Shown: positions 61,366 to 62,560 of the stretch, one piece after another
How positions within the stretch are numbered: position 1 is the stretch's first letter
Layout of the letters: each line of letters begins with the position of its first letter
Origin: Mansonella perstans
Lineage: Eukaryota > Nematoda > Chromadorea > Rhabditida > Onchocercidae
DNA length: 64,000 nt
NCBI GenBank assembly: GCA_037074765.1
Contig: JBAMDO010000002.1
Span: 248,001-312,000 of the forward strand
Direction: 5' to 3'
Made by a program: the position numbers and the translations under genes
The notes under the pieces: model-generated
The model's input: only the letters and a program-made list of their open reading frames with translations
Told to the model about the DNA's origin: nothing
Database searches by the model: none

Positions 61366-61554
61366 CTAAGAGGCAAAATAAATATAGAAGATGAACTCTA
61401 TAGCACTCAGAACAAAAAATCTGGAAAATTGAGGAAGCTTCCTTTTGAACTCCTTTTGAAGGCGTTCGTTTGCTCGAGGAAGGAGTGTCGGATTACTGAA
61501 ATTGAAATTACCAGATAGTGTCGGGAAAGTTTTTGTAACGTGGCACAGTCGCAT
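61366..61554 (-). CDS. Open frame directly behind an SL1 relic
   Basis: ATG at 61554 follows the last base of an SL1-like sequence with no gap and opens 62 codons to TAG. The N-terminus is MRLCHVTKTFPTLSGNFNFS, then a basic middle (NERLQKEFKRKLPQF) and a hydrophobic end. In an SL1 RNA gene the leader would be followed by a GT donor; here the ATG follows, as in a mature trans-spliced mRNA. So this looks like a fragment reinserted from cDNA. A second frame starting GTG at 61604 also runs through the leader copy. No family recognised; whether it is expressed is unknown. Confidence 0.4.
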   Translation of the reverse strand: MRLCHVTKTFPTLSGNFNFSNPTLLPRANERLQKEFKRKLPQFSRFFVLSAIEFIFYIYFAS

Positions 61555-61576
61555 CTCAAACTTGGGTAGTTAAACC
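61555..61576 (-). other. SL1 spliced-leader relic, inner copy
   Basis: The minus strand matches the 22-base nematode SL1 leader at all but one position (a T to C in the eighth base). It is not followed by the SL1 RNA donor or snRNA body, so it is a relic rather than an SL1 gene. Confidence 0.85.
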
Positions 61577-61604
61577 GTTGCGATGAGTTGAGTTGCGTTG
61601 ACAC

Positions 61605-61626
61605 CTTAAACTTGGGTAATTAAACC
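61605..61626 (-). other. SL1 spliced-leader relic, outer copy
   Basis: A second 22-base match to SL1 on the same strand, 50 bases upstream of the inner copy, again with one mismatch (G to A at base 20). The 28 bases between the copies are not leader sequence. The outer copy is followed by gtgtcaacgc, which does not resemble the conserved start of the SL1 RNA intron half. Confidence 0.85.
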
Positions 61627-62560
61627 TTTTATTAGAATAATTGGATAACGCGAGAATAATGTAACAATTATGTAGAACGCGTATTTAATCGTAACATTAA
61701 CATATAATAAAGCGGTAATGATGAAGAGAATAGAACCAGTAGCCTTGGATGTGAACAAATCCCAAAAATGGTCTTAATGAGTTGAGTTATAAGAAACTAA
61801 AGATCATAAAAAATGAAATCCTTTGTACAGATAAGCTTGGTTGAGAAGGTACAATATATTACATGTAAGCATGAGCATCAAACAAAGGATTTTGACACAG
61901 TTACACAATGGTTTTGGTTAATAAGATGTTAATTGCAGCTGCTTCTTTGTTAGTTTATGGTAGGAAGGAGTTTAACAGCTTATAATTGGAACAAAGAGAT
62001 TAAACATTGTGAAATTAATTAGATGGCTCATAAAAGACGTTAATACAATCAGATTTAAACCCTATTGGGAATTTCGCGACAAATAGTATGATGAAAGCGT
62101 CAGAATTATTTGGCGAAAGTTGAGATGATCGATTATAATAGTAATTCTTATTTTTCGTTAAATATATAACACAAAAATCTTCAATATCATGGTTGTTGTA
62201 ATAAAATATAAATCATTTGTTTCATTTTTAAATTAAAGTTCAGATTTATTTTGTAATATTTGAATTCTCGCAATAATCTTCCGTTGATTGTTAGATCTAG
62301 ATCTAGATCAATTATATCGTCTGGACTGTAGCAAGCAAGACATCGCTATCGATATGATGGAGAAGATCGTCCAATATAATTTCCACTCAGTGACTGATTC
62401 TAATTGTATTATCGATAATAGTGTTTATAACGTCAAAAAAAAAAAAAAAAATAAAATAAAATAAAATAAATATTCCTCAACAATTATTCATTAATATCTA
62501 ATAACAGAATAAGCACTTCATTATGATGTTTAATTCCAAAAACTTTCAGAACAGCCACTG
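61627..62560. other. Spacer with an A-rich microsatellite
   Basis: No gene recognised. An A-run followed by (AAAAT)n lies at 62435-62470. A tandem agatct-type motif (tagatctagatctagatc) lies near 62290-62310. Confidence 0.45.

What the first reader, a model, noticed from the sequence alone, without database searches (positions are those of the whole stretch)
61555..61626. Tandem SL1 spliced-leader relic in genomic DNA
Two 22-base SL1 matches, each with one mismatch, sit 50 bases apart on the minus strand. The inner one is followed directly by ATG and a 62-codon frame. This is the layout of a trans-spliced mRNA, not of an SL1 RNA gene. A double relic could mean that a reinserted SL-bearing cDNA was transcribed, trans-spliced again just upstream and reinserted once more, as described for recycled cDNAs in dinoflagellates. 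Reports of this in nematodes are, to my knowledge, scarce.
Basis: partly seen in the sequence, partly recalled or inferred. Interest (0 to 1): 0.85.

Follow-up and report, generated by a model that had tools for sequence, protein, structure and literature searches.

The report
Pao retrotransposon LTR carrying spliced leader
The two spliced-leader copies lie inside the leftover terminal repeat of a Pao-type jumping gene of a nematode, where the host's leader may serve as the end repeat the element needs to be copied into DNA; elsewhere in the same genome a related element seems to have picked up a host gene message through that shared leader.

Summary
In detail: two SL1 copies, one mismatch each, minus strand, none expected by chance. 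The pair sits in a 563-bp solo LTR (window 62081 to 61519; TGTCG...CGACA; flanks ctatt/ctatc) of a BEL/Pao family. Relatives carry SL1 in both LTRs and have DUF1759, Peptidase_A17, integrase zinc-binding and DUF5641 domains. SL1 RNA genes form a separate array on C518. The 62-codon frame looks like chance.

In the fetched DNA, 84 of 91 outermost SL1s directly follow AATAAA (control 1.1%). Best reading: SL1 is the R region of these elements, so a trans-spliced RNA has matching ends. Support: LTR chimeras that change over at or near SL1, and the C35 element (target duplications accac) in which U3-AATAAA-SL1 runs straight into the host RPL6 mRNA at its splice acceptor.

SL1 beside PAO elements is already reported in Brugia malayi (PMC7181701). 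Ten searches of one open library listed no report of SL1 as R or of capture through SL1. There is no RNA evidence; within-family SL1 conservation is not significant; some long-frame Pao copies show no SL1 in the lists.

The parts
61519..62081 (-). Solo LTR of a BEL/Pao-type element, 563 bp, TGTCG...CGACA
   Evidence: Edges from BLAST of 41 other copies and reading of the ends; classed solo; related LTR pair in C106 encloses Pao domains
62082..62086 (-). Upstream target-site duplication, ctatt
   Evidence: 4 of 5 bases match the downstream copy
61514..61518 (-). Downstream target-site duplication, ctatc
   Evidence: 4 of 5 bases match the upstream copy
61628..61633 (-). AATAAA poly(A) signal, one base before the outer SL1
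   Evidence: Sequence; listed as C2:309605-309633 with one mismatch, which lies in SL1; same place in 84 of 91 SL1 clusters
61605..61626 (-). Outer SL1, one mismatch; proposed start of the R region
61577..61604 (-). 28-base spacer between the SL1 units
61555..61576 (-). Inner SL1, one mismatch (the T-to-C form found as inner copy in 8 of 60 inner SL1s)
61519..61554 (-).
   Evidence: Shared with A-type LTRs

Best explanation
The feature is a solo LTR of a BEL/Pao retrotransposon whose LTR has the order U3 - AATAAA - SL1 (one or more units) - U5. Shown: the LTR, its family, SL1 in both LTRs of several elements, the poly(A) signal next to SL1. Inferred: SL1 acts as the R region (terminal redundancy). 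The host trans-splices SL1 onto the 5' end of the element's RNA, while AATAAA just before the LTR's own SL1 makes the RNA end within or just after it. Both RNA ends then share SL1, and the first cDNA strand jumps from the 5' SL1 to the 3' SL1. As many host mRNAs also begin with SL1, cDNA of a host mRNA can be joined to U3-SL1 in the same way, which would explain the C35 element. Recombination between two LTRs left the window's solo copy.
For: Solo LTR: edges and TSDs (of 19 solo copies 13 have identical 5-base flanks and 4 differ at one base; shuffled pairings 4.3% and 4.9%). Pao: domains between the C106 LTRs, 106 Peptidase_A17 matches in the genome. Position: outermost SL1 0-2 bases after AATAAA in 84 of 91 clusters, control 1.1%; 57 exact AATAAA|SL1 and 58 exact AATAAAA|SL1, reversed control 0. 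Both LTRs of an element carry SL1. Chimeras. Capture: C35 U3-AATAAA-SL1 joined to RPL6, parent 98% identical starting at the first base after SL1 and preceded there by TTGTAG, TSD accac on both sides.
Against: No RNA data. SL1 is not significantly more conserved than the rest of the LTR within the family (109 of 490 windows upstream are as low). The C40 chimera changes over up to 50 bases before SL1, not exactly at it. Long-frame Pao copies at C61, C333 and C309:16346 have no AATAAA(N)|SL1 with up to 1 mismatch near their PBS in the lists. SL1's own end (TTTGAG) is a poor acceptor (recalled). The capture is a single case, its inner junction was not read, and intron loss was not shown (one search found nothing). 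The capture needs SL1 on the host mRNA and in the LTR, not that Pao RNA itself is trans-spliced.
Confidence: 0.68

Rival explanations
1. SL1 is the R region, but element RNA is not trans-spliced: transcription starts at the DNA-encoded SL1, which is kept because R must match at both ends or because it imitates a host leader.
For: Explains AATAAA-SL1, SL1 in both LTRs, and even the RPL6 join, which needs SL1 only on the host mRNA and in the LTR.
Against: Does not explain how SL1 got there without trans-splicing at least once, nor C426:13324, where SL1 is joined straight to a U5 site that follows AAG in 21 relatives (the search string held GAAG with one mismatch allowed, so the AG is partly built in).
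Confidence: 0.18
2. SL1 was added once to an ancestral element's RNA, was copied into the LTR and is now a passive relic passed on with the LTR, with no role.
For: Within the window's family SL1 is no better kept than other LTR parts. PMC7181701 reads the B. malayi cases as integrated leaders. Pao copies without listed SL1 exist.
Against: Two groups of upstream parts that BLAST does not join (59 and 29 copies) both have SL1 directly after AATAAA; the downstream part varies as well; the C35 join through SL1.
Confidence: 0.11
3. One reading: a reinserted SL1-bearing host cDNA, transcribed, trans-spliced again and reinserted.
For: Two SL1s in tandem, ATG after the inner one.
Against: The pair lies inside a repeat found at dozens of places with LTR ends and TSDs; no host exon follows; most of the ATG frame is flank.
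Confidence: 0.02
4. A degenerate array of SL1 RNA genes.
For: Tandem SL1 spacing.
Against: No Rfam match in the window; the SL1 RNA genes found are 307-bp repeats on C518 with GTAATTG after SL1.
Confidence: 0.01

Closest known systems
SL1 sequences near PAO retrotransposons in Brugia malayi (PMC7181701; passages, section 7 read)
   Same: SL1 outside SL1 genes (120 sequences, 60 within 1 kb of PAO elements), sometimes on both sides of an element on one strand; explained by leaders added to expressed elements and integrated.
   Different: In what I read, SL1 is described as flanking the elements; no LTR position, poly(A) signal, R-region role or host-mRNA capture is given.
Pao of Bombyx mori (Xiong et al. 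1993; only the title seen, in reference lists; paper not held)
   Different: The title names no spliced leader; the text was not seen.
Recycled cDNAs with spliced-leader relics in dinoflagellates (PMC6050394; passages)
   Same: Leaders turned into DNA through reverse transcription; multiple leaders in tandem.
   Different: There the carriers are host genes, and the type of element that mediates it is unknown; here the carrier is the LTR element itself.
Cer1 of C. elegans (PMC3315495; passages)
   Same: A nematode LTR element whose transcripts can receive SL1.
   Different: A Gypsy/Ty3 element; [quoted passage not shown] no SL1 in the LTR is mentioned in what I read.
Nodavirus-like sequence in a Bel/Pao element of Bursaphelenchus xylophilus (PMC5177903; passages)
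   Same: Foreign RNA captured between the LTRs of a nematode Bel/Pao element.
   Different: Attributed to non-homologous recombination; 'spliced leader' does not occur in the text.

Membership tests
BEL/Pao LTR retrotransposon | LTR with TG...CA ends and a short target-site duplication | tested here: met
   Window copy TGTCG...CGACA, flanks 4 of 5 alike; 13 of 19 solo copies identical over 5 bases
BEL/Pao LTR retrotransposon | Pao-type domains between LTRs of the same family | tested here: met
   C106: DUF1759, DUF1758, Peptidase_A17, Integrase_H2C2, DUF5641 over cut-off; integrase core below its cut-off; no RT Pfam hit in the five pieces. The window copy has no internal part.
BEL/Pao LTR retrotransposon | tRNA primer-binding site after the 5' LTR | tested here: met
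   TGGTGCCACGAGCCGGGA after the C106 5' LTR and at 78 places with up to 2 mismatches, reversed control 0; that it pairs with a tRNA was not tested
BEL/Pao LTR retrotransposon | Place in an RT phylogeny (for instance the Tas clade) | not tested
   No tree was built
SL1 RNA gene | SL1 followed by a splice donor and an snRNA body | tested here: not met
   No Rfam match in the window; SL1 is followed by ATGCGA or GTGTCA, not GTAATTG
SL1-bearing host retrogene | Host exon sequence joined to SL1 | tested here: not met
   In the window the LTR tail follows the inner SL1. Met in C35 only, inside an LTR element
SL1 as R region | SL1 in both LTRs of one element, next to the poly(A) signal | tested here: met
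SL1 as R region | RNA 5' end and poly(A) site both at SL1 | not testable with these tools
   No transcript data
SL1 as R region | SL1 kept better than the rest of the LTR within the family | tested here: inconclusive
   Mean minority fraction 0.019 in SL1 against 0.030 in the rest, but 109 of 490 windows are as low

The most novel reading that the evidence does not exclude
Nematode Pao elements have adopted the host's spliced leader as their R region, so that trans-spliced RNA, otherwise unfit for LTR replication, is the proper template. As many host mRNAs start with the same 22 bases, the arrangement doubles as a homology-guided route for capturing host mRNAs between LTRs, of which the C35 U3-SL1-RPL6 element is the example.
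Probability: 0.52. Interest if true: 0.88.

Novelty: new variant of a known kind. Interest (0 to 1): 0.74.

Why it matters
[quoted passage not shown] How such elements copy themselves where most mRNAs are trans-spliced is then a real question. An element that uses the leader itself as its terminal repeat would answer it, with a clear prediction about RNA ends. It would also be a specific, homology-driven way for a retroelement to capture host genes in trans-splicing animals, and it would turn unexplained 'intrinsic' SL1 sequences of nematode genomes into marks of LTRs.

Tried and rejected
Rejected: SL1 RNA gene relics; a host cDNA at the window locus; a meaning for the 62-codon frame.

Led nowhere or against my reading: SL1 conservation within the family is not significant. 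The TTTGAG duplication after SL1 is the only exact tandem duplication found inside AATAAA-SL1 (5 loci exact, 6 with one SL1 mismatch allowed). It looked like re-splicing at an internal AG, but in C4 it stands in one LTR only although the LTRs are otherwise identical, so slippage is as good. SL1 repeats at 21-base spacing in C46 and C65 could be splicing at AATAAAG|GTTT or slippage. The predicted donor of the RPL6 parent gave no hit, so intron loss is not shown; of 636 pairs with U3 at least 0.88 alike, 188 have downstream parts at background, but many differ only by an inserted SL1 unit; they are not counted as chimeras. Of the 31 converse pairs 15 were printed: 12 involve the C40 element, 3 involve C129, which starts inside an SL1 array and was set aside. 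Two of the 12 (with C49) are at 0.66/0.87 and were not used.

eleven pairs: C106, C4, C466, C115 and C535 have matching flanks. C535 has lost the outer SL1 of one LTR. C40 and C114 have SL1 in both LTRs, but the fetched stretch cuts the LTR start. C19 has SL1 in both, but the contig ends in the second. C35 is the capture. C472 has unlike flanks. C532 is two separate solo LTRs.

One search was a first version that missed six LTR starts. Paper searches are judged from listings, plus passages of eight papers and one section. Most subscription papers are not held there, so 'no report found' is a weak statement.

Odds: after checking the draft against the calls, the novel case went from 0.55 to 0.52, because the C40 change-over lies up to 50 bases before SL1 and because the AG test at C426 has the AG partly built into its search string.

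Full report
WHAT IS THERE. The two SL1 matches exist as described. The window lies in an unnamed 75.7-Mb assembly of 539 contigs (C2:248001-312000) with 482 SL1-like places at up to 2 mismatches and none for the reversed control. The SL1 RNA genes point to a nematode; the species was not determined.

IT IS A SOLO LTR. A 3.5-kb query around the pair gave 77 matches (40 of 218 candidates scored, so a lower bound), with edges at query 1423 and, in the longest, about 1982, that is window 62078 to 61519. Reading the ends gives TGTCG...CGACA with the start at 62081. In several contigs two copies lie 3 to 7 kb apart in one orientation. In C106 the left copy is followed by a presumed primer-binding site, the right one is preceded by tttgggag (taken as the end of the purine tract), and the outer flanks read ttatc on both sides. 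Five protein pieces between them were scanned: four hit Pao-type domains (DUF1759, DUF1758, Peptidase_A17, Integrase_H2C2, DUF5641), one hit nothing; no RT family was hit and the integrase core is below its cut-off. Of 42 LTR copies aligned to the window LTR, classed 19 as solo (no primer-binding site or tttgggag found), 11 as 5' LTRs, 10 as 3' LTRs and left 2 unclassed. Of the 19, 13 have identical 5-base flanks, 4 (the window among them, ctatt/ctatc) differ at one base, 2 are unlike; shuffled pairings give 4.3% and 4.9%. The 62-codon frame starts in the last 36 bases of the LTR and runs on in flank.

NOT SL1 RNA GENES. Rfam finds none in the window. At least 50 SL1 RNA genes (only 50 were scored) stand in a 307-bp tandem array on C518, SL1 followed by GTAATTGAATG. 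These loci are left out of the cluster counts below; the 482 includes them.

WHERE SL1 SITS. In the fetched DNA (some loci chosen by exact SL1, some by likeness to the window LTR or to L008) 161 SL1s with up to 2 mismatches form 91 clusters. In 84 of 91 the outermost SL1 begins 0 to 2 bases after AATAAA; AATAAA ends within 3 bases before a random window position in 1.1%. Of the other 7, four have an altered signal (C2, C65, C104, C116) and three begin at an inner unit (C129, C457, C535). Genome-wide there are 57 exact AATAAA|SL1 and 58 exact AATAAAA|SL1, none reversed. Of 90 upstream parts BLAST joins 59 into one group and 29 into another, and leaves two single. LTRs of the window's family hold 1 to 10 SL1 units (40 copies), mostly 50 to 66 bases apart. 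[quoted passage not shown]

BOTH LTRS CARRY IT. Of eleven pairs compared, C106, C4, C466 and C115 have matching flanks and SL1 in both LTRs. C535 has matching flanks (ctgga), but one LTR has lost its outer SL1. C40, C114 and C19 have SL1 in both, with an LTR end out of view. C35 is described below. C472 and C532 do not count as pairs. C4 LTRs agree at 702 of 702 aligned bases plus one 6-base gap; C40 at 595 of 595 plus one 74-base gap; so some insertions look recent.

SIGNS THAT SL1 SERVES IN STRAND TRANSFER. First, chimeras. Downstream of SL1 the C40 element is 92-97% like C506, C31, C35 and C40:189501, while its upstream 250 bases are at 0.61-0.64 (shuffles: mean 0.62, 99th percentile 0.66). 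In 25-base windows the likeness rises from about 0.56 to 0.76-0.88 in the last 50 bases before SL1, then 22 of 22, then 0.88-1.0, so the change-over is near SL1 rather than exactly at it. In the window's family, A-type and B-type copies reach 97% over 350 bases of U3 while their tails after the last SL1 are unlike (0.54-0.60 in the six best pairs). Second, the C35 element (about 9200 to 5235, minus strand). Its left end is TGTCG...U3-AATAAA-SL1 and then, without U5 or primer-binding site, GTGCAAAACAATG and a frame of 76 residues read so far that matches ribosomal protein L6 (PF03868, E 3.1e-10; eL6 chains in the PDB). The right end is a full LTR, and both flanks read accac. U3 plus SL1 agree at 374 of 382 bases. 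A Peptidase_A17 match with one stop lies between (C35:7655-8128). The host gene is at C539:159603-159372, 98% identical over bases 1-232 of 240, beginning at the first base after SL1; there it is preceded by TTGTAG, a splice acceptor. The C-terminal L6 domain was found only at C539, so the captured part seems truncated. I read this as cDNA of a trans-spliced RPL6 mRNA joined through SL1 to U3-SL1 (inference; C35:8578-8128 was not read, and a predicted donor string gave no hit). Third, at C426:13324 SL1 is joined to AATATTGGC, a U5 site that follows AAG in 21 relatives (the search string held GAAG with one mismatch allowed).

HOW IT MOST LIKELY WORKS. In C106 and C31 an ATG lies within about 10 bases after the presumed primer-binding site (read by eye). 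If that is the gag start, a translatable SL1-bearing mRNA must be spliced upstream of that site and is also a possible genomic RNA. Its 5' end is SL1; AATAAA should put its 3' end in or just after SL1; the ends then share SL1, which is what R means. The first cDNA strand would end in SL1 and pair with the 3' SL1, and pairing with another unit would change the number of units. Each of these steps is inferred.

AGAINST. No RNA evidence. No significant extra conservation of SL1 within the family (42 copies, 26 with exact outer SL1; 109 of 490 windows as low as SL1). Outer SL1s have on average 0.69 mismatches and inner ones 1.1, a weak difference. Pao copies with frames of 2393-2452 aa at C61, C333 and C309:16346 have primer-binding sites but no AATAAA(N)|SL1 with up to 1 mismatch within 300 bases in the lists, so not every Pao element here has SL1. 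SL1's own end is a poor acceptor (recalled). The 6-base TTTGAG duplications may be slippage.

WHAT IS KNOWN. PMC7181701 (section 7) reports 120 SL1 sequences of B. malayi outside SL1 genes, 60 within 1 kb of PAO elements, and infers that leaders were added to expressed elements and integrated. The association is therefore not new. Ten library searches listed nothing that, by title or abstract, describes SL1 as the R region or host-mRNA capture through SL1.

VERDICT. The window feature is an ordinary solo LTR of an SL1-bearing Pao family.

Noticed in passing
G000:C35, about 9200-5235, minus (L086, L087): Pao element with U3-AATAAA-SL1 joined straight to the start of the host RPL6 mRNA, A17 domain inside, full right LTR, flanks accac on both sides.
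   Followed up: partly
G000:C178:12712-13300, C215:93239-93748, C248:3137-3580: LTRs with 8 to 10 SL1 units in a 60-base period, a small satellite made of spliced leaders.
   Followed up: partly
G000:C61:11666, C333:25830, C309:19847: Primer-binding sites of Pao copies with frames of about 2400 aa and no listed AATAAA-SL1 nearby; their LTRs could not be fetched.
   Followed up: no
G000:C518:7301-22977 (L069-L074): Array of at least 50 SL1 RNA genes in 307-bp units; one search shows no 5S gene by eye in the part read, which was not searched for one.
   Followed up: no
G000:C46:115120 and C65:184639 (L094, L098): SL1-like copies in direct succession at 21-base spacing after an AATAAA or altered signal.
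   Followed up: partly
G000:C40:188515 (L088): LTR whose U5 breaks off and continues with a sequence also seen beside a C31 LTR; the junction is not at an AG.
   Followed up: no
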